Shown piece by piece: positions 11,604 through 30,258 of a stretch of 64,000 bases of DNA. The stretch is from an uncultured Enterorhabdus sp. Its GTDB lineage: Bacteria > Actinomycetota > Coriobacteriia > Coriobacteriales > Eggerthellaceae. The stretch spans positions 62,001 through 126,000 of the forward strand of contig CANSQM010000001.1 in NCBI GenBank assembly GCA_947649205.1, written 5' to 3'. The notes under the pieces were generated by a model that worked only from the letters and a program-made list of their open reading frames with translations, was not told the DNA's origin and did no database searches. Position 1 is the first letter of the stretch, and each line of letters starts with the position of its first letter. The translations under genes were made by a program, and so were the position numbers.

Positions 11604-12611
11604 TTAGTTTGTGTGCAAACAGCTATCTGCGTATTTGACTATAGATTCATTGATAAATAGTAAGAAATTATTTTTCAAAGACAATTTCTCGAGAGTTTCA
11701 ATGAAAAGATTTTCTCCGCAATTGTCTCGCGCTATTGTTTTTAGAACACTCTTTGTTTCTTCCGGAAGATCCAGCTCAGCAACAAAATTTAAGATATCCT
11801 CTTCTTTAACGATGAGAAATGGGTTTTGATCGAAGCCTGGAATCACCTTTTCATCGATGACTTCAACGAATGTGTTTTCGAAAAGAACATCTTGAGAGCG
11901 AATCAGGGCATCCTCCAAGGTGTTTAACTCTTCGCTGCTTATCTGCCCATGTTCGATAAGTCGGCCATTTGAGTCAAAAGACATGAAGTCGAGCAGACCG
12001 TCCTGCCTTTCATCTTGAAAAGCAGTAAAGGTTTGCGTGCCTTCGCGTAGAGAAGAGACCGAGCTCAAATCTCCGTTTTCTCCAATGAAGAAATAGCTAC
12101 CGCTTTGAGACTCTTCGGAAGGGAATCCCTGAGTTTCCATAACATGCCAGCCGGATGGTCTTTTCTCGGCGCACTTGATCTTTCGATGCTTTATCCAGTT
12201 GATAGCTACCTTGGTGTCAATTGAAAACCGTTGAGCGAATTCTTCTATTGAAAGAAGGCGTGCGTTTATACATATAATTGGCTCATATGTTGACGACTCC
12301 GCTGATTCGATCTCGTCGCTTTCATCAAGGGAGATCTTTGTATACTCTACGGAGTTGAGATTGATATCAATATTCGTAATAACTATTTCGTAGGATGCAA
12401 AAGGTTTTTCCAAATATGCCAAGTCGCAGTTGCAGACTTTCTTCGTGAAGTGGTTGATCAGCTCGATTAGCGCTGGTCTATAGAAAATAGCATCCGAAGA
12501 GTGCTCTTCGTCATGCATGAGGCGAAGTGAGTAATCACTCAGTGCCTCTAGAACTTCTCTTTTTGATTTAATTGCCTTTCTTTGAAAGAGCTTTAATGTG
12601 TGTGCATCCAT
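11604..12611 (-). CDS. Unknown protein with excisionase/MerR-like helix-turn-helix
   Basis: I do not recognise this 335-residue protein as a family. A helix-turn-helix like those of excisionases is visible in the middle (SIEEFAQRFSIDTKVAINWI, followed by KHRKIKCAEKRPSGWHV, about 116-155). Acidic regions flank it: an N-terminal half of mixed strands, and a C-terminal half with a DEKVIPGFDQNPFLIVKEED segment. The ATG has AGAGG five bases upstream. It is the first gene of an operon with the short HNH protein and is divergent from the long HNH protein. It may be the DNA-recognition or control subunit of that locus; this is inference. Confidence 0.55.
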   Translation of the reverse strand: MDAHTLKLFQRKAIKSKREVLEALSDYSLRLMHDEEHSSDAIFYRPALIELINHFTKKVCNCDLAYLEKPFASYEIVITNIDINLNSVEYTKISLDESDEIESAESSTYEPIICINARLLSIEEFAQRFSIDTKVAINWIKHRKIKCAEKRPSGWHVMETQGFPSEESQSGSYFFIGENGDLSSVSSLREGTQTFTAFQDERQDGLLDFMSFDSNGRLIEHGQISSEELNTLEDALIRSQDVLFENTFVEVIDEKVIPGFDQNPFLIVKEEDILNFVAELDLPEETKSVLKTIARDNCGENLFIETLEKLSLKNNFLLFINESIVKYADSCLHTN

Positions 12612-12678: not shown

Positions 12679-14031
12679 ATGGATTCGCCTCCATATGATA
12701 AATCGAGTAGAGAGGGGTACGATGTGAGCATGGTGCTGAATGGTCGAAGACTGATTTGCGGAATTAATCCTAAGCTTGCAAAAAAGATCTGCGAGATGTG
12801 TCGTGATTATCCACGATCTACGGAAGAAATAGCACGCATGCTATCAATTAGCGAGATTACTGCGGAAAGTTGGCTTGTTTCTCTTGCTGAGGCAGACTAC
12901 TTGAATGTAGAGATAGAAAGCGAAAGAATCTTTTGGCTGTGCACCCCAAAAGGATATACCTCGCTTGTAGCCGCTCGGTTCGGTAAGCCGTTGTCAGGAG
13001 AAGAGTTTGCTAATCTACTTTTTTCGATTATGCAGCGAGCGAGGGAATACAACGCAAATGAAACCTTTCCGCTTCGTATAGACAAGATCTATGCATTTGG
13101 TTCCGTATTCACTCAGCCGTGGCAAATCGAGGATCCCAATTTAGCTATAACTGTTAGCGAAAGACCTTGGGCTAGTAGGGATTCCAATTGGAGGTTGGAT
13201 TATTATGCTCAGCGATCTGCCAGTCAGCATCTGTCAATTGTCGAGCAGTTGTATTTTGCTGAGGAGGAGCTGGGCCGTTTTCTTAAAAGGAAAAAGGAGC
13301 ATTTTTCGATCTACCATCAGGATGCTTCGGAAGTATCTGATGAGAAAAGATTGCTATTTATCGGTGAACACATAGATCCTTCCGGTATCGATGGCGTTCT
13401 GATGACGATTTCAGAGATACGAGATTTGGGAGAAAAGATCACAAGACATAGAAGTGCGATTCCTAAAAGCAGACGGTCTAAAATAGCACGAGTTCGGAAT
13501 GAGGATATTGTAAATTACTGGAGAAATTCAGCCTGGTTTATTGAGTTGAACATTTTGCCTGAACATGCAGCGAACTGTTGCTGGCGATGTGGAAGCAGGC
13601 AAGATATTCAGCGCTGTCATATCGTTCCCGATGCTCTTGGCGGCGGATTTGAGGAGTCAAATCTTGTATTGCTGTGCGCACGTTGCCATGCGGAGGGCCC
13701 GAACCTGCAGGACAAGAACATCATGCTTGATTGGATTAAGTCGTATAGAAAAAAGTGGCCGGATGACTTCTGGATCAATGCGGCAATGAATGAATACGAA
13801 CGCATTTACAATAAAGATATTCGAGCTGAAGTCGAGGAAATACTTTGCAGAGAAGGGGCTTCACTAGAGCTCGATGCGGCGATTGCCGAGTTGGAGCTTC
13901 TTGCTAACGAGGCGGCGACTGCTGCAACATTTCACTTTGGCCAAACATGGCTAAACAATGCAAGTTTGGCAGGCTGCTTTCGAATAGCTCTTGAGGAGCT
14001 GCCAAATCAGCTTCGCAGATTGTGCGTATAG
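12679..14031 (+). CDS. HNH endonuclease with N-terminal winged-helix and degenerate nucleotidyltransferase-like region (long paralogue)
   Basis: The 450-residue protein appears to have three parts. Residues about 30-95 look like a winged helix (STEEIARMLSISEITAESWL). Residues about 125-160 resemble a minimal nucleotidyltransferase motif (KIYAFGSVF, then DPNLAI where active enzymes have two acidic residues), so it may be catalytically dead. Residues about 270-445 are an HNH domain (CCWRCG, QRCHIV, LLCARCH) with the C-terminal signature HFGQTWLNNASLAGCFRIAL. The HNH half is paralogous to 11003-11590. The first ATG lacks a ribosome-binding site; an in-frame GTG at 12724 has GAGAGGGG six bases upstream and may be the true start. 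AT-rich. Confidence 0.7.
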   Translation: MDSPPYDKSSREGYDVSMVLNGRRLICGINPKLAKKICEMCRDYPRSTEEIARMLSISEITAESWLVSLAEADYLNVEIESERIFWLCTPKGYTSLVAARFGKPLSGEEFANLLFSIMQRAREYNANETFPLRIDKIYAFGSVFTQPWQIEDPNLAITVSERPWASRDSNWRLDYYAQRSASQHLSIVEQLYFAEEELGRFLKRKKEHFSIYHQDASEVSDEKRLLFIGEHIDPSGIDGVLMTISEIRDLGEKITRHRSAIPKSRRSKIARVRNEDIVNYWRNSAWFIELNILPEHAANCCWRCGSRQDIQRCHIVPDALGGGFEESNLVLLCARCHAEGPNLQDKNIMLDWIKSYRKKWPDDFWINAAMNEYERIYNKDIRAEVEEILCREGASLELDAAIAELELLANEAATAATFHFGQTWLNNASLAGCFRIALEELPNQLRRLCV

Positions 14032-18210: not shown

Positions 18211-19745
18211 ATGATGAAAGCTACGTTAAGCGTTCCCACCGTCGAAGTTGCTATAAAGAGGCTTCAGGAATCAAAAGCGCATGAACAATCGGTGTTTTAT
18301 CTATCGCTTCTTAAGCTGTCGACTGAGCACGACGATTTAAGTGAGTGTTTGGCCTCAGCGTATCAACAAATTATATCGAAATGGCTCGATGTTCCGGGCG
18401 GTTCTTCGCCTTACTATCGTCCGTTTGCGTCGAGAGGCGAGAACTATTGGATGAACCCCAATTTAGCTGGCAGTTTTGCACCCAGCTCTTTGCGTGACGA
18501 AAAAAGGTGCTGTTTTACACATCTGAAGGGAAGCTGCGTTTGCCGTCAGTCACCGAGATTTCTTCTAAGTTGATTGGCGGCCACCTTATCCCAGCATGGG
18601 CTTTGGCTGCTTTTCTTTTTCGTAATTGCTTGCTTGTTTCTCCGTCGGAGTATATTACAGATAGGGAATTAGTAGAATTACTCAGTCGCTATTTCGCGCT
18701 TGACGACTTGGAGTTTTACTCGAGTATTTTTGACTTCTCGACTCCTGGAGAAAAATGGCCACTTGATCGCGTGGACGATCTTGATGAGGGCAGTACTGAT
18801 CAGGTCGAAGTTCTAGATGTCGTGTCTTACGACTACCGACGGCTAACTGCGGTGCAGTTAGGCTTAGAGAGAATCGAGGGTGGCTTAGGCGTTCCGTCAG
18901 ACAGTTCCGAAGCCATTTTGCCAGAAGCTACCAAGAATGCAGATCTTGACGAAAACATCAAGGAGATACTGCAAGTATTAGAAGATTACTTAGGCGTTAT
19001 TTTGTCTGGTGCCCCCGGAACGTCGAAATCCTACTATGCTCGATTGGTGGCCGAATTTATTGCCGATGGCGATGATGGCCGAATGGCATTTGTGCAGTTC
19101 CACGCTTCATACCAATTCGAAGATTTCATGGAGGGGTACAGGCCTGACACGACGACGGGTGGCTTCGCGAAGGCGGACGGAATATTTCTTCAGCTATGCA
19201 AGAAGGCGCTGTCTGACAAAGCACATTCATATTGCATTGTCATAGATGAGCTTAGTCGAGGAGACTCTCAGCGCATATTTGGTGAGGCCCTTACGTATAT
19301 AGAGAGAAGTAAGAGGGGGCTACCCTTTTTACTTCCAAGTGGCGAAGAGGTTGTTATACCTGAAAACGTCTATATTGTTGCTACGATGAATCCCGTGGAT
19401 AGAGGTGCAGATGAAGTTGATTTAGCGTTTGGGCGCCGATTCGGCATCATTGAAATGAATCCTCGTGCAGAGCTTCTCAGAGGGCGTTTAATTGCATCCG
19501 GGATGGATGATGCTGTGGCTGGGAAAATTGTGGAGTGGTTCAATCGTTGCAATGCGGCATGTTCTAGTAGATCTCTTCCCGAGTTGGGCCACGCATTCTT
19601 TTGGTCAGTGAAAGATTATTCGACATTGAGCAGAGTGTGGCTGTACCAGGTGAGGCCGCATTTAAAGAAGGTTTTTCGCTTCGATGCGATTGAATGCGAT
19701 AAACTTATGAAGAATTTTGAAGAGCTGCTGGATTCCCTTCAATAA
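18211..19745 (+). CDS. McrB-like AAA+ NTPase subunit of a restriction system, with internal frameshift
   Basis: The gene reads in one frame from 18211 to about 18500 and in the minus-one frame from there to 19745; one extra A in the A6 run at about 18498-18503 would fuse them into about 511 residues. The C-terminal AAA+ domain has Walker A GAPGTSKS (about 19008-19031), Walker B with IVIDELSRGDSQRIFGEAL, and ATMNPVDRGADEVDLAFGRR, all McrB-like. The N-terminal part, probably for target recognition, is unrecognised. It would power DNA translocation for the McrC nuclease encoded 7 bases downstream. The frameshift may be a real mutation, slippage at A6, or a sequencing error. AT-rich. Confidence 0.82.
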
Positions 19746-19752
19746 ATCAATT

Positions 19753-21093
19753 ATGCCATTGTTTAACGTTTCAGAATATGACCAAATATCTATACAAGAA
19801 ATAGAAGACTATCTGTCGGAAGAAAAAGGTTATCCGTATCGACTTTCGATCTATCCAGATGTAATTGCAAGCGGTCTCATTCAGATTCAATGTCGTCCCA
19901 AAAAAGATAGTCAGGATGGTCTTGTCAATTTTCTGCGGCCATCAAAGCACATCGGTCTTGTTCCTCTTGCTCCGGAAGTGTCTTTATGGGTGAACCCGAA
20001 AGTACCGATTGCTAACATAGATCAAATGGCCAAGCGCTACGGAGGCATTGTTTCTAAAGATATTAATGAGCTACGCAGCTATGTCTCGACCGACGATACC
20101 GCCATGGAGCTGAGGAAACAGTTTGCTTTGTCGCTTGTCCGTTTGGCTGACTCGATAGTCGGAGTTGGGTTACTCCATGAGTACGTTAGAGAAGAAAGTA
20201 GCAATGGTTCTATTGCAGGGAACATTGATTTTTCTCAAACGATGAAGCGCTATATTTCGAGAGGAATTGGCTATCAAGTAGTAAGTAATTCATTTAAAAA
20301 GAGTATAGATATTAATATAAATAGACTGATTAGGACTGCACTTTTTCAAATTGCGGAAAATAGTCGCTATGAGTCTGGACTTCGCGCAAAAGCAGATCGG
20401 ATCTCTCGTTGCATGTCTGATGTCGCTGTTATTAGTTCTGTCCACCAACTTGCTATTGCGATGCGGGAGATTCCGCTTCCGTCGAGTCGAGATGATTATG
20501 CGCAGGCTATTCCTCTCTCTAAGGTGTTGCTGGTTGATGACGGCATTGATCTGCTGTCAAGAGATGGGGCCTTGCTGATGGAGCCACTATTTGTAGATAT
20601 GAGCGAAGTATTTGAGAGATATATTTTGCGAATTCTGCAAGATTCCCTTGTGGGGTTTCGCGTTGTATCGGGAAATGATGCAGTAAATTCTGTCCCGTTG
20701 TTTGAGGATAGATACAACGGTCTTCTTGAAAATGGCTATGAGGTCGCCCGCAATGCTTTTGGTACCAATAAAAAGCACTCTGCGTGTCCTGACATTCTGA
20801 TTTTTCGAAATGCGACGCTTAAGTTGGTCGCGGATGTAAAATATAAGCCTTTGCAAAATTCAATAGCCGCCAAGAGAGAAGATGTCGAGCAAGTTGTTAC
20901 CTATGCCGAGCGTTTCGGCAAGAAGATCGCCCTTTCGATACATCCTTGCTTAACAAGCCAAGAAGCTGGCTTGTATTATTCTGGAAATGTTGGCGAAATA
21001 TCAGTTTTATGCTACCAGATCAACTTAGGATCAGAAAACTTATCTATCGAAGAAGAAAAGATTGCTAGCGCCATTCGCTCACTGATTATATAG
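19753..21093 (+). CDS. McrC-like nuclease subunit
   Basis: This 446-residue protein (from the ATG at 19753) matches the McrC family. It has an N-terminal region that would contact the McrB-like hexamer, followed by a PD-(D/E)xK nuclease domain with PDILIF and LVADVKYKP, giving the acidic residues and catalytic Lys, then a QVVTYAERFG helix. It would cleave DNA once loaded by the McrB-like motor. It overlaps the convergent methyltransferase gene by 15 bases at its end, which ties the three genes into one locus. Confidence 0.85.
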   Translation: MPLFNVSEYDQISIQEIEDYLSEEKGYPYRLSIYPDVIASGLIQIQCRPKKDSQDGLVNFLRPSKHIGLVPLAPEVSLWVNPKVPIANIDQMAKRYGGIVSKDINELRSYVSTDDTAMELRKQFALSLVRLADSIVGVGLLHEYVREESSNGSIAGNIDFSQTMKRYISRGIGYQVVSNSFKKSIDININRLIRTALFQIAENSRYESGLRAKADRISRCMSDVAVISSVHQLAIAMREIPLPSSRDDYAQAIPLSKVLLVDDGIDLLSRDGALLMEPLFVDMSEVFERYILRILQDSLVGFRVVSGNDAVNSVPLFEDRYNGLLENGYEVARNAFGTNKKHSACPDILIFRNATLKLVADVKYKPLQNSIAAKREDVEQVVTYAERFGKKIALSIHPCLTSQEAGLYYSGNVGEISVLCYQINLGSENLSIEEEKIASAIRSLII

Positions 21094-22158
21094 GGTTACT
21101 CTTTGCCTGAGGCTATCGTTGAGAATCGGCTTTAGGTCGGTACCGATGGCATTTCGACCCATTTCCAGCGCAACACTTAAAGTAGTTCCGGTTCCCGCAA
21201 ACGGATCTAGTACGACCCCTCGGGTCATGCTTTCGTGCTCACACCCCTGCCAGCCCACTGTTGTGCGTTTAGCGAAGGTAAACTCACGGAAGTACCCGCC
21301 TAATGCCTCTTTTGCTTCTAGGGCTAGTTTCGTTACATGGTCAGAGTTTCTTCCTGTGCCATTTTGGAATCGAGTTGCCTTGCCGACGTCGGAAATGCCG
21401 AAGGATTGGATGGCTTCAATATGGGCCTGGGTGAGCCCCTTTTCTTTCGCCAATGCGAGGGCGCGTTTTGCTTGCGGGCGCTCGAGGTTTAACTGTGCCG
21501 TACGTTTTTCGACACGAGTAACGGGAGTGCCGCACTTTGAGCATATGGCGTAGGGGCAAGCGAGAAGAATGGCTCGTTTAACAAGCTCTTTTGGAAATGG
21601 TGCAAGATGCGAAGACATTGAACGATCAGGCGCAAATGTCCAGACATCGCCGGGAGTTGCATCTACGCCTAAATAGTCACAATACCCACGCGTGTCATAA
21701 TAATAATTACTGGACTGTGGCGTGAGATGAATAATATATTCGTATCTGTTCGCCAATCGGTCTTTGGCTGGTTCGGGCATTCCGGTTGGCTTGGACCAAA
21801 TGATGCGATTTCTGCAAGTCCAGCCCTCGTTTTTGGCGGCGTTTTCAAACATGCCGGGTATGTTAAGTAGGGTTTTTTTATAGTAACTATCGCCAATGTT
21901 TATGAAGAGCGATCCTGCTGGTTTTAAGACTCGACGCCATTCGCGAAGACACTTTAACATTGCTTCGATGTACAACTCGGGTGTTGCCTCGTTTCCTATC
22001 TGTCCTGCGACACCGTAATCCCGTTTATTCCAATAGGGCGGCGATGTAACAATAAGGTCGACTGAGTTGTTGCTTGCAGGTATGCTATCAGCTGAAGCGA
22101 TATAGAGATCGGCTTTTGCTCCATGGTCAAAAACCACATCATTCAGTGACTTGAACAT
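21079..22158 (-). CDS. DNA methyltransferase (beta class, N4-cytosine/N6-adenine type)
   Basis: The 359-residue enzyme has the catalytic motif IV as TSPPYW (about 38-43) before the AdoMet motif I as DPFAGTGTT (about 318-326), the order of beta-class amino-methyltransferases. SPPY favours N4-cytosine, but adenine is possible. Between them lies a CxxC-containing insert (CPYAICSKCG) with a later Cys and His, perhaps a zinc-binding target-recognition region. It is convergent with mcrC and overlaps it, so it probably protects host DNA from the McrB/McrC-like nuclease. The ATG has GAGAGGA upstream. Confidence 0.88.
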   Translation of the reverse strand: MFKSLNDVVFDHGAKADLYIASADSIPASNNSVDLIVTSPPYWNKRDYGVAGQIGNEATPELYIEAMLKCLREWRRVLKPAGSLFINIGDSYYKKTLLNIPGMFENAAKNEGWTCRNRIIWSKPTGMPEPAKDRLANRYEYIIHLTPQSSNYYYDTRGYCDYLGVDATPGDVWTFAPDRSMSSHLAPFPKELVKRAILLACPYAICSKCGTPVTRVEKRTAQLNLERPQAKRALALAKEKGLTQAHIEAIQSFGISDVGKATRFQNGTGRNSDHVTKLALEAKEALGGYFREFTFAKRTTVGWQGCEHESMTRGVVLDPFAGTGTTLSVALEMGRNAIGTDLKPILNDSLRQRVTLYNQ

Positions 22159-22346: not shown

Positions 22347-25262
22347 ATGCGTCTATCTGATGATTCTCGATTCGAATACAGTGTCGTTGCCTTTGAAGAT
22401 ACGCTGCGGGCTAGCTTTATCGGGTCCGAGAAGCCCTCTGATGATCGGTACGCCCCCAAAATCGTTATGAACGACAAAGAGAGTGCGACTGATGTGCTCT
22501 CGATAATTAAGAACGAGCTCGCGGATTGCACATCGTTTGATTTCTCGGTTGCTTTTGTAACCGCCGGTGGTATTCAGGTTCTTGTTGAGGCCTTGAAACT
22601 TCTGGAAAAGCGAGGGGCGACGGGGCGCATTCTGACTTCCACCTACCTGAACTTCAATGATCCGGAAGCGCTGTCGAAACTGTTGGAGTTCCCGGCTATA
22701 GATGTTCGCGTCTACCAAGGGGACTTGCACGCGAAAGGATATTTCTTCAATCGCGAAACGCTCTCGACGTTCATTATCGGAAGTTCGAATCTGACGCAGA
22801 CAGCTCTCACCTGCAACAAGGAGTGGAACGTTCTCTTTCGGTCGTTCGAAGGCGGGGAAATGCTCGCTTCTGCGAGGGCCGAGTTCGAGCGCCTTTGGAA
22901 AGACGAGAAGTCGATCGAGCTTAACCAGGAGTGGATTCGGGGCTACAAGCGCTATCTCGAAGAGGGTTCTTCCGATGCGGCAAAGCACGCAAAGCGGCTT
23001 AAGGCCTTCGCCGCAAAGACGAATAAGCCGGGTGCCGCTTCCTGTGCGCCGTACGAAATCGTGCCGAACGCCATGCAGGAGAGAGCTCTTGAGGCCTTGA
23101 AGGTTCAGCATAAATTGGGCGAGCCTCGCGCGCTGCTCGTATCTGCAACAGGTACGGGAAAGACTTACCTTTCCGCACTCGATGTTCGCCAGACCAAGCC
23201 TGCCAAGGTTCTCTTTGTGGCGCACCGTAAGCGGATCTTGAAGGCCTCCGCCGAGAGCTATCGGCGTGTTCTGGGGGATAGTTTCACGTATGGCATTTAC
23301 GGGGAAGATCCGGCTTTCCGGTCCAAAACGTGCGGGTTCGCAATGGTTGGGGCTCTTTCTAAGTATCGGCAAGAATTTGATCCTCGCGAGTACGATTACA
23401 TTGTGATCGATGAGGCCCACCGAACGGGAGCGCGCAGCTATCGCGACATTCTTGAGTACTTTCAGCCCAGATTCTTCTTGGGTATGACGGCGACTCCGAC
23501 GCGTACCGACGGATACGATGTCTATCGCCTGTTCAATCACGTCATTGCCTATCGAATCACCCTCCAAGATGCTCTGAAGGAAAACATGCTTGTGCCGTTC
23601 CACTATTTCGGTATCGCCGACCTGGCCATAGATGATGAGGAGACGGACGACTTCGTCTTGTTCGGCCAGCTGACGTCGGAGGAACGCGTCCGGCATGTCA
23701 CTGAAAAGATCGAGGAATATTCCGTCAACAAAGAGGATCGAAGGGGGCTTGTCTTCTGCTCCCGGAACGACGAGGCGCGGACGTTGTCGCATCTTTTCAA
23801 CGAACGGGGTTATCGCACGGTTGCGATTTCGGGCGAAACGCCTGACTGGGAGCGCGACAAGGCAATCGAGCGTCTTGAGCGTGGGGAGCTGCAATACATT
23901 TTCTCGGTAGACATCTTGAACGAAGGAATCGATATTCCTTCTCTGAACCAGATTATTATGCTGCGGCGCACGGAATCGACCGTGGTGTTCATGCAACAGT
24001 TGGGGCGCGGTCTGCGTAAATACGACTCGAAGGAATTTACCCTCGTTCTTGACTTCATCGGTAACTACCAGCAGAACTTTCTCATTCCCATGGCGCTCTC
24101 TGGAGACCGAACCTACAACAAGGACAATCTTCGCCGCGTGGTGAAGGAGGGGAGCGCCGCTATTCCGGGTTGCTCCACCATTTCTTTCGACAGCATTTCC
24201 GAGAAACGAATCTTTCGTGCTTTGGAAGAAGGCAGGTTTGCGGAGGCAAAGCTCATTCGGAGCGAGTTCGAGCATTTGAAACAGGTGTTGGGAAGGACGC
24301 CAAGGCTTGTTGATTTCGATGCGAACGAGGCCATGGACCCATTGCTGATTATTCGGAAATATGGCTCATATCCTGCATTCCTACAGCAATACGACAAGGA
24401 CTGCACGACTCATTTCGGCGAAAAAGAGCTCGCTATGCTAAAGGCGATTTCCACGAAGCTGGGCAACGGAAAGCGTGCGGTGGACCTCGAGATCATTCGA
24501 AGCTTTGCCGAGGGCGACATAACGATCGAGAAAGAAGGTCTTTACGCTCGTGGCGTAAAGGAGGAGGCACTTCGCTCGGCTTCTCGTGTTTTAACGGGCG
24601 AGTATTCAAAGGATGGTCCGGCTGTTGCGGTAGATGAGGGAGGGAGGTTTGTGGCCTCTTCTGAGTTTGTGGCCTTGCTGATGGACGATCGGTTCCGCGA
24701 TGCGGTTTTGGATTTGGTGGAGTTTGCGCTTGCGAGGAACACGCGGGATTATGCCAACACTTACAAGGACACCGATCTTGTGCTCAACCGAAAGTACACG
24801 CGCGAAGAAGTGTGCCGACTGCTGAGATGGAAGAAACAGCCAAACTTCCAGAATGTCGGCGGATATTTCCACGACAAGGACACCAACACCTTCCCGGTCT
24901 TCATCAACTATGAGAAGGATCCCGACATTAGCATCACCACCCAATATGAAGATCGCTTCCTCTCGGATAATCGAATCATTGCTATTTCCAAGAGCAAGCG
25001 CTCTCTTACGTCTCCGGAAATTCAAATGCTGGGGAATGCACGCCTTAACGGAGTTCGCTGCTATCTGTTTGTGCGCAAGAACCTCAAAGACAAGGACGAC
25101 GGCACGGAATTCTACTTCCTGGGTGAGGTTCATCCTACGGGCGAGTTCAAAGAAATAACCATGGCTGATGGAGTTACCAGTGCGGTGGAGATTGCCTATG
25201 AATTGGAAAACCCTGTCAAGGGAGATATATACGAGTTCTTGACCAGTCGGCTTGACGATTAA
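22347..25262 (+). CDS. PLD-domain superfamily 2 helicase with DUF3427
   Basis: The 971-residue protein has an N-terminal phospholipase-D-like domain (about 60-190; LHAKGYFF and later GSSNLTQTA, one HxK motif), a DEAD/DEAH helicase core (Walker A SATGTGKT, DEAH in VIDEAHRTG, motif III GMTATPTRTDG, and the C-terminal QQLGRGLRKYDSKEF), and a C-terminal DUF3427-like region after about 620 with ITTQYEDRFLS and YLFVRKN. A PLD domain fused to an SF2 helicase suggests DNA cleavage coupled to unwinding. Such proteins occur widely in accessory and defence loci and are often next to Nudix genes, as here. AAGGAG precedes the ATG. Confidence 0.88.
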   Translation: MRLSDDSRFEYSVVAFEDTLRASFIGSEKPSDDRYAPKIVMNDKESATDVLSIIKNELADCTSFDFSVAFVTAGGIQVLVEALKLLEKRGATGRILTSTYLNFNDPEALSKLLEFPAIDVRVYQGDLHAKGYFFNRETLSTFIIGSSNLTQTALTCNKEWNVLFRSFEGGEMLASARAEFERLWKDEKSIELNQEWIRGYKRYLEEGSSDAAKHAKRLKAFAAKTNKPGAASCAPYEIVPNAMQERALEALKVQHKLGEPRALLVSATGTGKTYLSALDVRQTKPAKVLFVAHRKRILKASAESYRRVLGDSFTYGIYGEDPAFRSKTCGFAMVGALSKYRQEFDPREYDYIVIDEAHRTGARSYRDILEYFQPRFFLGMTATPTRTDGYDVYRLFNHVIAYRITLQDALKENMLVPFHYFGIADLAIDDEETDDFVLFGQLTSEERVRHVTEKIEEYSVNKEDRRGLVFCSRNDEARTLSHLFNERGYRTVAISGETPDWERDKAIERLERGELQYIFSVDILNEGIDIPSLNQIIMLRRTESTVVFMQQLGRGLRKYDSKEFTLVLDFIGNYQQNFLIPMALSGDRTYNKDNLRRVVKEGSAAIPGCSTISFDSISEKRIFRALEEGRFAEAKLIRSEFEHLKQVLGRTPRLVDFDANEAMDPLLIIRKYGSYPAFLQQYDKDCTTHFGEKELAMLKAISTKLGNGKRAVDLEIIRSFAEGDITIEKEGLYARGVKEEALRSASRVLTGEYSKDGPAVAVDEGGRFVASSEFVALLMDDRFRDAVLDLVEFALARNTRDYANTYKDTDLVLNRKYTREEVCRLLRWKKQPNFQNVGGYFHDKDTNTFPVFINYEKDPDISITTQYEDRFLSDNRIIAISKSKRSLTSPEIQMLGNARLNGVRCYLFVRKNLKDKDDGTEFYFLGEVHPTGEFKEITMADGVTSAVEIAYELENPVKGDIYEFLTSRLDD

Positions 25263-25277
25263 CGGCAGCCTCAACGG

Positions 25278-25667
25278 CTAGAGCACTTCCTCCTTCAGGG
25301 CATCCACCACGGAGATATCTGCCGGAAGCCAGGCAACGGAATCGATGGTCTCGCGATCGAGCCATCGGGCCTGGGCGTGCTCGAGGAGATCGATGTGGTC
25401 CTCCGCAAGGGCGCAAAGATAGCAGCCCATGTGAAGACGGAATGCCTCGTAGTCGTAATCCACTGTGCAAAGGTGTCGGTTTACGATGATTTCGGCGTTA
25501 AGCTCTTCGTGGATTTCCCGGATAAGCGCTTGCTCCTCCGTTTCGCCCGGTTCGACCTTGCCGCCGGGAAACTCCCAGCCACCTTCGAACTCGCCGTAGC
25601 CTCGCTGCGTCGCCAGAACGCGTCCTTCTCGTTCGATGATGGCTGCTACTACGTGAATGGTTTTCAT
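25278..25667 (-). CDS. Nudix hydrolase, MutT/8-oxo-dGTP diphosphatase-like
   Basis: The 129-residue protein carries a complete Nudix box, from GGKVEPGET to REIHEELNAEI (about 35-57), with all the metal-binding glutamates. The N-terminal MKTIHVVAAII and GGWEFPGG are typical of MutT and related (deoxy)nucleoside triphosphate pyrophosphohydrolases. It hydrolyses a nucleoside triphosphate or similar compound. It converges on the helicase gene with 15 bases between the stop codons. A joint role with the helicase is possible because the pairing recurs in other bacteria (from memory). Confidence 0.9.
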   Translation of the reverse strand: MKTIHVVAAIIEREGRVLATQRGYGEFEGGWEFPGGKVEPGETEEQALIREIHEELNAEIIVNRHLCTVDYDYEAFRLHMGCYLCALAEDHIDLLEHAQARWLDRETIDSVAWLPADISVVDALKEEVL

Positions 25668-25843: not shown

Positions 25844-27856
25844 TCAATGCCTGCTCTCGTCTGCTAGCTCCTTAGCAAGATGGAAGACGCTTTCGTCGTA
25901 GAAGGGCCAATCGACGAGATTTTCCAATCCGCCCTTCTTTGTTGCGATCATAAGCTCCTCATTAATTTTGAGGGTAATACAGATGAGCAAGCTCAGCATG
26001 CGATAGTAGTCGGTTCTGATTTCCTCTGCGTTGGGGTCAGTGATTGCGGCGTGCGCATGATCGTATCGGTTTCTGAGGGCTAGAGAGTTTGGGAAGGAGG
26101 CGTCGTTGAACATGTAGTCAAGATACGCGGCCTCTGTTGGCGTGAATAAGGTGTCGCAATATGCGAGAATATCGCGATCCACCAGTTCTTGCACAAGTTT
26201 TAGCTCGGCATTTTCCAAAAATCGTAAAACCAAGGCGTCGTTATCCCAGACGCATTTAAGGCAAACGGCGGCCAAGGATGGTTTGAACCCTTCTGCTTCT
26301 TTGGCAATAAAGCCATTGTCTTCCAGTTGGCCAATGCTAGAGTGGAGATATTCAGGGTAATCGTTTTGGGTGATGTTGTGTCGCAGCATGGCATCGTAAA
26401 AGCAGGACTCGCTCTCGTTTGAATCGGCTAGGTACGACAGCATGCATTGGTCTGAAAAGAGGGTAAAGCCCCACTGTTCAAAACCGGATCCGGCAATGAC
26501 GTATTTAGGCTTTATTAGTGCTGGTATCGATGAAAAAGTCTTCATGCTCTCGAACGGAAAATAGTCGTTGTCGATTTCTCCGCGCTTGGCGTAAATAGAG
26601 TAAGCCTTTACCGCTCGCTCGACCTCAGGACCAATAGCTTTGCATTTGTCTAGCCAGGTTGTTTCCTTTGTAGGCAGTGCAAGAGAAAAACCTTTGATGT
26701 CGAACTCATCTGCGAAATATTCGTTGTAAACCCATTCTAGCGCGGTTTCTAATCGGGCATCATTGCTCTCTAGGAATTCCGAGTAAGCCGCCGTTTCGAT
26801 TAAAGCGAGACTATCGCGTATATGAGAATCCATAAACGAACGGTATTCTCCGATTGCGTGCAGGCCAAGAAGTCCCATGATGCCGCGTGCTTCATGCTTG
26901 CGTGCTGGCATAGTCATTAGGCCGCTTGGATCTAAGTAATCGAAGATGTAAATTAGATTATTCATAATCGTTGCGGGATCCGTGAACTTCTTTAGCCAAG
27001 GTCCGCTGAAAGAGTGGATGACCACGAGATCTTCGCGGGCCATTCCCTTGCAGGCGATTTGCGACATGTTGATGTTAACTCCTGCGCCATAGCGTAATCC
27101 TGTCCCATTTTTAAACATAGCTTGAACGGACTCTTCGTGTTTACGCTTTGCTCCAACACGAATTTCTGCTGAGGGCGTATATCTGTTTACCATTCCGGAT
27201 GGCCAGTTGCGTAGCACCCATAGATAGTTTGGATTGGCTTTCTCGTCGTTGATATAGCTCAACATTATTGAGTTGATATCCTCATTATGAAGTTGTGAGG
27301 GTAGAAATAATTTCGTGTTGTGGGTTGAGTCGGATGCAAGACGGTTGATTATCGTTTCTGCGGAAAGAATCGGATTTCTTCGCATTGCGTCGGCGATCTC
27401 GCTGTCAAATTGATTTACGAACTTCTTTCTTTCCAGAGCGGAAACAATGCATTCGGGATGAGTCTCCAGCAGTTCCGCGAAATCGGCCGAGCTAATCATT
27501 TTGTGAGCACCGCACACGCCCATTAGTTGCCAAAATGGTTCGTGGTACTGAAGTTCGATCTGCTCGTACATGGACGCAATGCTGTCATATGAAAGAGCTT
27601 TGCTGACATATGCGCATGCATGTGCGAAGAACTGTCGGGAGGCTTGGCTTGTGTTGATGGAATCCTCTTCTTCGAAAATCTCTGGGATCCCCTCAACAGT
27701 AAGCCTGCATTGATGCGCCTCTATGGCATCGTTGATCGACTCGATCTGCCTCTTCTCGCTGTCTCGTAAAAGTTCCAGGCACCTATCTCGATAGTGGCCT
27801 GCAGCCAAATCGTTGCGCCCAAAATATCGTACTCGGTTCTCGTCGTAATCTCTCAT
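25844..27856 (-). CDS. Unknown 670-residue protein with C-terminal HEPN-like RNase motif
   Basis: I do not recognise this large, mostly alpha-helical soluble protein. Near the C-terminus (about residues 590-603) it reads NSLALRNRYDHAHAA. This contains R-x4-H and the LRNxxxH context found in HEPN ribonucleases and DUF4209-like domains. Helices with conserved-looking acidic residues flank it. No nucleotide-binding motif is seen. HEPN proteins often act in abortive infection or toxin systems by cutting RNA; a stand-alone sensor-effector for phage defence is a reasonable guess given the neighbours. The ATG at 27856 has no strong ribosome-binding site. AT-rich compared with flanks. Confidence 0.6.
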   Translation of the reverse strand: MRDYDENRVRYFGRNDLAAGHYRDRCLELLRDSEKRQIESINDAIEAHQCRLTVEGIPEIFEEEDSINTSQASRQFFAHACAYVSKALSYDSIASMYEQIELQYHEPFWQLMGVCGAHKMISSADFAELLETHPECIVSALERKKFVNQFDSEIADAMRRNPILSAETIINRLASDSTHNTKLFLPSQLHNEDINSIMLSYINDEKANPNYLWVLRNWPSGMVNRYTPSAEIRVGAKRKHEESVQAMFKNGTGLRYGAGVNINMSQIACKGMAREDLVVIHSFSGPWLKKFTDPATIMNNLIYIFDYLDPSGLMTMPARKHEARGIMGLLGLHAIGEYRSFMDSHIRDSLALIETAAYSEFLESNDARLETALEWVYNEYFADEFDIKGFSLALPTKETTWLDKCKAIGPEVERAVKAYSIYAKRGEIDNDYFPFESMKTFSSIPALIKPKYVIAGSGFEQWGFTLFSDQCMLSYLADSNESESCFYDAMLRHNITQNDYPEYLHSSIGQLEDNGFIAKEAEGFKPSLAAVCLKCVWDNDALVLRFLENAELKLVQELVDRDILAYCDTLFTPTEAAYLDYMFNDASFPNSLALRNRYDHAHAAITDPNAEEIRTDYYRMLSLLICITLKINEELMIATKKGGLENLVDWPFYDESVFHLAKELADESRH

Positions 27857-29142: not shown

Positions 29143-30258
29143 GTGGCAGATAAAACCGAGGGCATCCAGCGGGGGACGTTCAACCCGTTTACCCCTGAAT
29201 TTGGAAAAGTGCCTGCCTATTTCGCCGGTCGAGAGCAGGTGCTCTCGGATGTCCTGAGCGCCTTCGAAGAGCAAGCGACAAACCTCTGCGCCCTGTTCGT
29301 CGGTCCGCGCGGCTGCGGTAAAACGGCTCTTCTCACATATCTCGGCAACGAAGCGTCTCGGCTTGGGTGGGTGATAGCCAATGTTTCGGCAACACCGGGC
29401 ATGCTTGAGGATATCGTCCAGCGCACCGAGGAGTCGGCCTCTCATCTCATTGAGACCTTGCCCGAAAAGTGTCTTACGGGTGTGAACATCGCGGGCCTTG
29501 GAGGGGCGACGTGGAACCCGAGAGGCGAATCGGAAGCGAATTGGCGCACGCGCATGAATGGCCTTTTAGACCGTTTAGGTGAAGCGGGCGTCGGCTTGCT
29601 GATTACCGTTGACGAGGTGGATGTGTCTCTCGACGAGATGAGCCACCTGGTTTCGACATACCAGCATTTCGTGCGCGAGAACCGCAAGGTCGCCCTCGTG
29701 ATGGCGGGGTTACCGTTCCATATAAGCTCGCTTCTCAGCGGTAAGAACACGTCGTTTCTTCGCCGAGCCCAGCGCTTCGATCTGAGTTCCTTGGCACCTT
29801 ACGAGGTGGAAGAGGCCTTTCGCCTGACGGTTGAAGAAGGCGGCAGGCTTATCAACGAAGGGGCATTGACCGAAGCGGTTGAGGCTATCAACGGATTTCC
29901 TTTCATGCTTCAGCTTCTGGGCTATCGAGCATGGCGCATGCATTCCGACGATGCTTTCCTGAGTATCGAAGACATTCGCGCCGGTGCGCAGAGGGCTCAG
30001 CGTGAACTGGAAGATCGCATCTTCGACGTCACCTATGCAGAGCTCTCCAAGGCAGATAGGGCGTTTCTCGCGGCCATGGTGCAAGACGAGAAGGTCACCA
30101 GTCGCGCTGATCTGATGGGGCGACTGGGAAAACCTTCGGGGCATATTTCCACGTACAAGAAACGACTTGTGCAGAGCGGCGTTATTGGTGAAACCCTCAA
30201 CGGCGATTTTTATTTTGCGCTGCCCGGTTTCAGGGAGTACATCGCGGGCCGGGAGTAG
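29143..30258 (+). CDS. AAA/STAND-type ATP-binding protein with C-terminal winged helix
   Basis: The 371-residue protein starts with a short segment, FNPFTPEFGKVPAYFAGREQ, seen in Orc1/Cdc6-like and STAND ATPases. Walker A is GPRGCGKT (54-61) and Walker B is LLITVDEVD (about 150-158). A sensor region follows (FLRRAQRFDLSSLAPYEVEEAF), and the last 60 residues look like a winged helix (SRADLMGRLGKPSGHISTYKKRLVQSGVI). It probably binds DNA in an ATP-dependent manner; similar proteins are annotated only as ATP-binding. The start is GTG. The repeats just upstream may be its own binding sites. No adjacent effector is encoded on the same strand. Confidence 0.8.
   Translation: MADKTEGIQRGTFNPFTPEFGKVPAYFAGREQVLSDVLSAFEEQATNLCALFVGPRGCGKTALLTYLGNEASRLGWVIANVSATPGMLEDIVQRTEESASHLIETLPEKCLTGVNIAGLGGATWNPRGESEANWRTRMNGLLDRLGEAGVGLLITVDEVDVSLDEMSHLVSTYQHFVRENRKVALVMAGLPFHISSLLSGKNTSFLRRAQRFDLSSLAPYEVEEAFRLTVEEGGRLINEGALTEAVEAINGFPFMLQLLGYRAWRMHSDDAFLSIEDIRAGAQRAQRELEDRIFDVTYAELSKADRAFLAAMVQDEKVTSRADLMGRLGKPSGHISTYKKRLVQSGVIGETLNGDFYFALPGFREYIAGRE

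What the first reader, a model, noticed from the sequence alone, without database searches (positions are those of the whole stretch)
18211..22158. McrB/McrC-like pair with a convergent DNA methyltransferase: LlaJI-like restriction-modification rather than plain McrBC
Classical McrBC is a type IV system that cuts methylated DNA and needs no partner methylase. Here a beta-class methyltransferase overlaps mcrC by 15 bases. Known LlaJI-type systems pair McrBC-like restriction subunits with methylases, so this locus probably recognises a specific site and protects the host by methylation.
Basis: partly seen in the sequence, partly recalled or inferred. Interest (0 to 1): 0.5.

Follow-up and report, generated by a model that had tools for sequence, protein, structure and literature searches.

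The report
Modular McrBC-type restriction system with methylase
A bacterium carries a three-gene phage-defence cassette in which a DNA methylase probably marks the host's own DNA while a GTP-driven McrB/McrC nuclease would cut unmarked DNA; here the cutting half looks broken, and its likely target-reading part belongs to an unnamed protein family that in other microbes stands beside quite different enzymes.

Summary
In detail: an McrB/McrC pair (18211-21093, +) and a convergent beta-class DNA methyltransferase (21079-22158, -) overlap by 15 nt. The pairing is not chance: of 80 methyltransferase loci kept from a capped genome scan, 41 belong to the close family and 23 of these carry mcrB and mcrC beside it, against 0 of the other 39. 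Best reading: a GTP-dependent restriction-modification system that works like LlaJI but is not LlaJI: its methylase is of the N4/N6 type (no 5mC methylase found in the genome), and its N-terminal domain looks mainly helical. That domain belongs to a ~215-aa family (0 of 36 match Pfam or NCBIfam), a separate gene in 23 of 26 cassettes. It also sits beside an AAA_21+DUF4276 pair, cytidine-deaminase-like proteins or a 304-aa unknown. Its partners, McrB included, share a short peptide near their start (strict match 25 of 33; 0 of 14 N-terminal parts of other McrBs). A phage carries the methylase without the domain, 307/337 identical to a cassette copy, as expected if methylation protects. Function, target and methylated base are untested.

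The parts
18211..18573 (+). First part of mcrB: start and first ~100 codons of the N-terminal domain (domain match 18220-18507); the tail after ~18507 is out-of-frame read-on
18500..18507 (+). Frame break in mcrB, at or near a run of six A; domain similarity leaves this frame here and resumes in the other
   Evidence: intact homologue in L009
18507..19745 (+). Rest of mcrB: second part of the N-domain (18543-18746), linker, GTPase domain; the first possible start in this frame after an upstream stop is GTG 18507
18837..18863 (+). Linker peptide RRLTAVQLG, shared with effectors of related cassettes
19008..19031 (+). P-loop GAPGTSKS of the McrB GTPase domain
19386..19400 (+). NxxD signature region (MNPVD) of McrB
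   Evidence: NxxD motif described in PMC11090510 (sections 6 and 7)
19753..21093 (+). mcrC (ATG start; a TTG start at 19717 is possible)
   Evidence: PF10117 85.4 bits for the form from 19717
20788..20847 (+). PD...DxK nuclease motif of McrC (PDIL, DVKYK)
   Evidence: PD and VKYK columns invariant in the 4 aligned McrC
21079..22158 (-). Beta-class N4/N6 DNA methyltransferase, open frame with motifs; N4-cytosine predicted
   Evidence: PF01555 145.2 bits; PADLOC PDLC03316 472.6 bits
21079..21093 (.). 15-nt tail-to-tail overlap of mcrC and the methyltransferase
   Evidence: of the 11 other convergent cassettes 10 overlap by 4-71 nt and L018 has a 1-nt gap

Best explanation
A GTP-dependent restriction-modification cassette. 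The methyltransferase marks a specific site on the host's DNA (inferred). [quoted passage not shown] The McrB GTPase ring then drives the McrC nuclease to cut (inferred from characterised McrBC and LlaJI). Shown here: the conserved linkage, the catalytic motifs, the membership of the N-domain in a family that travels with this methyltransferase, and the frame break. In 23 of 26 cassettes the N-domain is its own ~215-aa gene; in the window, L009 and L036 it belongs to McrB. In this strain mcrB is frame-broken, so most likely only the methylase half still works, unless the break is a sequencing error.
For: Linkage: of 80 methyltransferase loci kept, 41 score >=200 bits to the close family; 23 of 41 have McrB and McrC and 31 of 41 have the N-domain protein; none of the 39 more distant loci shows any of the three at E<=1e-5. 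The sister locus L009, in a contig with portal, terminase and major-head genes, has the same convergent trio with mcrB in one frame. Protection: the contig L100, taken to be mycobacteriophage Dulcie (equal length 53,970, same identity), has no N-domain protein in its record and no McrB or McrC in the 17 kb fetched; its methyltransferase is 307/337 identical to that of the Gordonia amarae cassette L018 and pairs with it on the tree (SH-aLRT 99). The N-domain sits where characterised McrB proteins carry their DNA reader: DUF3578, YTH, or B3 in LlaJI (PMC7680126, passages). LlaJI, McrBC-like with methylases, targets unmethylated DNA in vivo (PMC1459862, passages).
Against: No methylation, binding or cleavage data. 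The window's mcrB is broken, so restriction may be absent here. Median pI of the 32 aligned N-domain rows is 5.8, which does not favour DNA binding. The predicted fold has no Foldseek match at E<=0.001 in the PDB; the rows of the second look are weak (Z 2.3-3.6). Loci were found through the methyltransferase, so the linkage counts are conditional on it, and related loci are not independent. 10 of the 41 close-family methyltransferases have no N-domain protein found beside them. A general association of McrBC with methyltransferases does not by itself say which DNA is cut.
Confidence: 0.72

Rival explanations
1. In this strain the cassette is a decayed restriction-modification system and the methyltransferase now works alone, as an orphan mark. 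It does not contradict the best explanation of what the family is.
For: mcrB is split between frames inside the N-domain while mcrC and the methyltransferase keep open frames and motifs. L022 (Phytohabitans) also has mcrB in two ORFs.
Against: A frame displacement at a homopolymer is also a common sequencing or assembly error; one assembly is at hand.
Confidence: 0.6
2. Plain type IV McrBC that cuts modified DNA, with a methyltransferase gene that happens to lie beside it.
For: McrB and McrC resemble E. coli McrBC (114.9 and 31.4 bits to the NCBIfam models, both below cut-off). 9 of 10 McrB loci that I chose from the plasmid listing (60 rows shown of 335 records) have no methyltransferase of this family within about 3.5 kb.
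Against: Linkage 23 of 41 against 0 of 39; 0 of 36 N-domain family members match any Pfam family, where E. coli McrB has DUF3578; a phage keeps a close copy of the methyltransferase without the N-domain protein.
Confidence: 0.1
3. The N-domain family is not a DNA reader but an adaptor or switch that licenses the effector, for example by sensing the methyltransferase or another infection signal.
For: It lies beside at least four effector types that share a short peptide; median pI 5.8; no clear match to a DNA-binding fold.
Against: It stands in the place of the DNA-binding domain in the McrBs of the window, L009 and L036; the weak structural neighbours are DNA-binding proteins, among them the BpuJI recognition domain.
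Confidence: 0.25
4. The frame change is used: recoding or an internal start makes a short McrB without the N-domain, like the McrB short form of E. coli.
For: A run of six A at the break; E. coli makes a short McrB by internal initiation (PMC12707154, passages).
Against: The break is inside the N-domain, not at its boundary; L009 has only four A at that place and one frame; by eye no spaced ribosome site precedes GTG 18507.
Confidence: 0.06

Closest known systems
LlaJI (Lactococcus lactis pNP40; H. pylori homologue)
   Same: McrB-like subunit with N-terminal reader and GTPase domain, McrC-like PD...D/ExK subunit, dedicated methylation; LlaJI targets unmethylated DNA in vivo (PMC1459862, passages)
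   Different: LlaJI has two 5mC methylases and four similarly oriented genes, and the H. pylori one a B3 reader; here one N4/N6-type methylase was found, convergent, and the N-domain family looks mainly helical
LlaI and BsuMI three-ORF restriction cassettes
   Same: Short McrB-like subunits (337 and 343 aa) in restriction cassettes of three ORFs (PMC1459862, section 5), like the split relatives here (McrB mostly 320-361 aa, ~215-aa protein, McrC)
   Different: Homology of their third protein to the N-domain family was not tested (sequences not fetched); in the window the domain is part of McrB
McrBC clades associated with DNA methyltransferases in the census of Bell et al. 2024 (PMC11090510)
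   Same: NxxD McrB with a nearby predicted DNA methyltransferase; the association is already reported there in general terms
   Different: The passages and the two sections read leave these clades to a later paper and do not describe this N-domain, its free-standing form, the shared peptide or other effectors; the rest and the supplements were not read
E. coli K-12 McrBC (type IV)
   Same: GTPase and nuclease subunits
   Different: No methyltransferase partner; DUF3578 reader of modified cytosine (PMC1459862 and PMC7680126, passages)

Membership tests
McrBC family (GTPase + nuclease core) | AAA+ GTPase with P-loop and NxxD, McrC-like subunit with PD...D/ExK | tested here: met
LlaJI | Two 5mC methyltransferases | tested here: not met
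   0 PF00145 matches in the whole genome (control rings in 10 of 14); the only PF01555 protein found is this one
LlaJI | B3 (beta-barrel) N-terminal recognition domain | tested here: inconclusive
   Model of a free-standing family member (L035, pLDDT 93.9) is mainly helical with few short strands, which speaks against B3; no direct comparison with the B3 structure was made
LlaJI | Recognition site GACGC/GCGTC | not testable with these tools
   -
Type IV McrBC | No cognate methyltransferase | tested here: not met
   Conserved methyltransferase linkage; that it is cognate is inferred
Type IV McrBC | Cuts modified DNA | not testable with these tools
   -
Type II-like restriction-modification system | Methyltransferase genetically linked to the nuclease | tested here: met
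   23 of 41 close-family loci, L009, L099
Type II-like restriction-modification system | Methylation of the site blocks restriction | tested here: inconclusive
   Indirect only: methyltransferase kept by phages without the N-domain protein
Beta-class amino-methyltransferase (N4C/N6A) | Motif IV before motif I, N6_N4_Mtase domain | tested here: met
   N4C rather than N6A rests on SPPY, recalled as typical of N4C
N-domain family described here | Profile match over the domain | tested here: met
   87.2 and 28.0 bits on the two sides of the break; E 6.7e-24 and 4.0e-6 in the genome

The most novel reading that the evidence does not exclude
The methyltransferase and the ~215-aa protein form a portable self/non-self module. 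The protein reads the unmethylated site and recruits interchangeable effectors by a short peptide (V-R-x-L-[TS]-x-x-[DEQ]-L-G) near the effector's start: McrBC in most cassettes found, an AAA_21+DUF4276 pair in L035/L038, a 304-aa unknown in L033, and in haloarchaea a cytidine-deaminase-like protein, sometimes fused to a GyrA C-terminal domain. In the last case restriction could be by deamination of unmarked cytosines, which N4-methylation would block.
Probability: 0.4. Interest if true: 0.82.

Novelty: new variant of a known kind. Interest (0 to 1): 0.6.

Why it matters
McrBC nucleases are filed as type IV, yet branches of them are associated with methyltransferases (PMC11090510). This family gives a concrete, conserved cassette on which to test how an McrB ring is aimed at unmethylated DNA. 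It also names a candidate reader that is a separate gene in 23 of the 26 cassettes found, so it can be purified and swapped. If the same reader recruits nucleases, ATPases and deaminases by one peptide, such restriction-modification would be a modular platform rather than a fixed enzyme pair. Phage copies of the methyltransferase offer a natural test of counter-defence.

Tried and rejected
A viral scan with McrC alone found no relative; with the two-row alignment only L009's contig again, as L097. The N-domain alignment A7 was too variable for a viral scan. The N-domain of the plasmid cassettes L015/L016 is not shown to be the same family: hhalign E 0.082, probability 0.69%, so those loci and L148 were kept apart. 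PDB sequence search with the N-domain profile: 0 matches up to E 10. Foldseek: none at E<=0.001; the absence of B3 from that list is not taken as proof. A model of full-length L009 McrB had a poor N-domain (whole-chain mean pLDDT 72.0, pTM 0.56); residues 210-221, which hold the peptide, are the one part of linker 176-236 outside the listed stretches below pLDDT 50, no more than a hint. PADLOC: one family among 36 members, a PtuA model in 3, best E 6.6e-5; in the 2 that showed it among 10 looked at singly it covers about positions 5-167 of a 627-position model; weak, unfollowed. The peptide pattern was written after seeing the sequences (first form, wider form). Its 8 strict misses among 33 are five near forms (L023 VRTLGADDLG, L030 and L031 VRALTATEVG, L039 VRPMSLEDLG, L046 VRRLSPEDLE), one weak form (L028), one without any (L029) and one with a doubtful ORF start (L020). 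Left out of the 33: the three fused McrBs (window and L009 match, L036 does not), the broken L022 (its piece matches), and the haloarchaeal effectors of L013, L048, L049, L134-L136, L139 and L140, mostly near-copies. Fisher p-values ignore kinship. In the tree the label 'deam' was first given by rule; one search confirmed a deaminase-profile match in each of those 14 loci. Several of the 39 distant loci are short contigs, and L010 is a 10-kb fragment, so absence there is weak. Literature listings showed no paper naming this domain; an unnamed family cannot be searched by name, so this is weak. PMC6066307 (LlaJI B3 structure) is not held. LlaJI, LlaI and BsuMI sequences were not obtained (one accession tried).
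Full report
What is there. The window holds an mcrB-like gene (18211-19745, +), mcrC (19753-21093, +, with an earlier TTG at 19717) and a convergent DNA methyltransferase (21079-22158, -). Pfam gives AAA_5 (59 bits), McrBC PF10117 (85.4 bits) and N6_N4_Mtase (145.2 bits). The methyltransferase has SPPY at residue 39 and DPFAGTG at residue 318, the order of the beta class; McrC has PD...DVK; McrB has GAPGTSKS and MNPVD. The 3' ends overlap by 15 nt. The genes lie in a stretch of about 45% G+C, while the outer parts of the window have 58-71%. McrC has a match in 2 of 199 related genomes, the own genome and one weak hit (24% identity, E 1.8e-4); the methyltransferase in 6 of 199, the other five weak (E 4.4e-5 or worse). 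This fits horizontal acquisition.

The break. mcrB is not one frame. ORF 18211-18573 and ORF 18507-19745 are in different frames, and in the second frame a stop lies just upstream of GTG 18507. A profile of the N-terminal domain family matches 18220-18507 and then 18543-18746 in the other frame (87.2 and 28.0 bits). The sister gene in L009 is a single 506-aa frame. So the domain is interrupted at or near a run of six A (18500-18505). Mutation, sequencing error and recoding cannot be told apart here; an intact homologue exists.

The cassette is conserved. I searched ORFs of these loci with profiles of McrB, McrC and the methyltransferase. Of the 80 loci, 41 score 200 bits or more to the close family. 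Of these 41, 23 carry McrB and McrC; the other 18 are 4 haloarchaeal loci with a deaminase-like neighbour (L046-L049, profile match in each), 2 with AAA_21+DUF4276, 1 with a 304-aa unknown, 1 cut by the contig end inside mcrB, and 10 without the N-domain protein. None of the remaining 39 loci shows McrB, McrC or the N-domain protein at E<=1e-5; several of those contigs are short. With the window, L009 and the viral contig L099 there are 26 McrBC cassettes: 12 convergent like the window (10 Actinomycetota genomes, the window, L009) and 14 with all genes in one direction. Of the 11 other convergent ones, 10 overlap at their 3' ends by 4-71 nt and L018 has a 1-nt gap. On the methyltransferase tree (61 rows) the window and L009 are sisters (SH-aLRT 100).

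The N-domain is a family of its own. In 23 of the 26 cassettes a ~215-aa protein is encoded next to McrB, which is then mostly 320-361 aa; in the window, L009 and L036 the domain is part of McrB. phmmer links these proteins to each other and to the N-termini of the window, L009 and L036 McrBs. Among 36 members, 0 match Pfam, NCBIfam or PHROGs, and 3 weakly match a PADLOC PtuA model. Conserved residues include Y29, N87, G90, S96, R98 and R145 of L035. The model of the L035 protein (32 rows) has mean pLDDT 93.9 and is mainly helical. Foldseek finds no PDB match at E<=0.001. The second look shows five weak rows (Z 2.3-3.6): DR2539, ORC2, two BpuJI recognition-domain entries and DtxR, DNA-binding proteins that I recall as winged-helix. 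Against DNA binding, median pI is 5.8. In characterised McrB proteins this position holds the DNA reader: DUF3578, YTH, or B3 in H. pylori LlaJI (PMC7680126, passages). A profile search found the family in 1 of 396 sampled genomes of the own phylum (the own genome) and in 10 of 242 sampled genomes of the class of L047.

Other partners and a shared peptide. In L035 and L038 the N-domain protein is followed by an AAA_21 ATPase and a DUF4276 protein (the L035 ATPase scores 418.8 bits to PADLOC HEC-01A), in L033 by a 304-aa protein without Pfam match. In 8 of 10 stretches fetched from haloarchaeal genomes (L134-L141) it lies with a methyltransferase of the family and a cytidine-deaminase-like protein; L142 and L143 have McrB and McrC instead, L143 with a methyltransferase of low score (87 bits) and L142 cut at the contig end. 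The deaminase assignment rests on a profile match to cytidine deaminase entries (1ux1, E 1.1e-10); in 3 of the 6 aligned proteins (L137, L138, L141) a GyrA C-terminal domain follows (E 1.9e-79 for the profile). The zinc-motif region reads HxxE, not the usual HxE (recalled), so activity is open. Near the start of these effectors I noticed V-R-x-L-[TS]-x-x-[DEQ]-L-G. A strict pattern, written after the fact, is met by 25 of 33 effectors (24 McrB, 9 others), against 0.05 expected from shuffles. In the N-terminal part of 14 McrBs without the N-domain protein beside them (10 plasmid loci that I chose, L015, L016, L002, the second McrB of L020) it is met by none; one match in L154 lies at residue 397, inside the GTPase-matching part. 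Of 4007 other ORFs, 13 match in their first 120 residues; 10 of these are copies or pieces of the same effectors, 3 are not. In the window McrB the peptide is RRLTAVQLG (18837-18863), shortly after the domain, and in L009 RTLDSDDLG; L036 has no strict match.

Why restriction-modification. Linkage is one argument. A second is phage capture: mycobacteriophages Dulcie and Parliament carry the methyltransferase at 60.9% and 60.5% identity to the window. The copy in L100, taken to be Dulcie by equal length and identity, is 307/337 identical to that of the Gordonia amarae cassette and pairs with it on the tree (SH-aLRT 99). No N-domain protein was found in the records of L100, L098, L010 (a 10-kb fragment) or plasmid L012; it was found in L009 and L099. 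McrB and McrC were absent from the fetched parts of those four, not searched beyond. A phage gains from such a gene if methylation protects; it would lose if the nuclease cut methylated DNA. A third is precedent: LlaJI pairs McrBC-like subunits with methylases and targets unmethylated DNA in vivo (PMC1459862, passages).

Not LlaJI. LlaJI has two 5mC methylases and a GACGC/GCGTC site (PMC1459862, passages). This genome (99.6% complete) has no PF00145 match, and its only PF01555 protein is the one here; other methylase families were not searched. The split relatives resemble in layout the LlaI and BsuMI cassettes, with short McrBs of 337 and 343 aa and three restriction ORFs (PMC1459862, section 5). 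A general association of McrBC with methyltransferases is in print (PMC11090510, sections 6 and 7), which lowers the novelty of the pairing itself. A second plasmid type (L015, L016, L148) places a related methyltransferase before mcrB and mcrC with an N-domain not shown to be related.

Verdict. A real, conserved, modular McrBC-type restriction-modification cassette, probably with N4-cytosine methylation; in this strain the restriction half appears broken. What is new to me is the unnamed N-domain family, its free-standing form, and its sharing among different effectors. The mechanism of recognition is inferred, not shown.

Noticed in passing
window 22347-25262 (+): PLD-helicase-DUF3427 protein beside the methyltransferase; PADLOC mREase_IV PDLC03658 at 642.8 bits. 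Whether it accompanies the cassette elsewhere was not tested.
   Followed up: no
window 25278-25667 (-) and 25844-27856 (-): Nudix protein matching PADLOC PDC-S07 (164.4 bits) and a 670-aa protein matching PDC-S56 (474.8 bits): more candidate defence genes in the same lower-GC stretch.
   Followed up: no
window 12679-14031 (+), 11604-12611 (-), 29143-30258 (+): HNH protein, a 335-aa protein without family match, and an AAA_16 ATPase in or beside the stretch.
   Followed up: no
   Followed up: partly
L035, L038: Methyltransferase + N-domain protein + AAA_21 ATPase + DUF4276 protein.
   Followed up: partly
L043, L050, L052, L053, L054: Close-family methyltransferase followed by a ~1470-1485-aa protein; the L053 one has AAA_11/AAA_12 domains. 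Another partner type.
   Followed up: no
L015, L016, L148 (plasmids): Co-directional methyltransferase-mcrB-mcrC with a different McrB N-terminal region and a recombinase gene nearby.
   Followed up: partly
L022 10354-11393 (-): mcrB of the Phytohabitans cassette is also in two ORFs, a second possibly broken copy.
   Followed up: no
PADLOC model PDLC00270 (PtuA1), L032 and L031: The first ~165 positions of a Septu ATPase model weakly resemble the N-domain family (18.5 and 12.7 bits); perhaps a further fusion partner.
   Followed up: no
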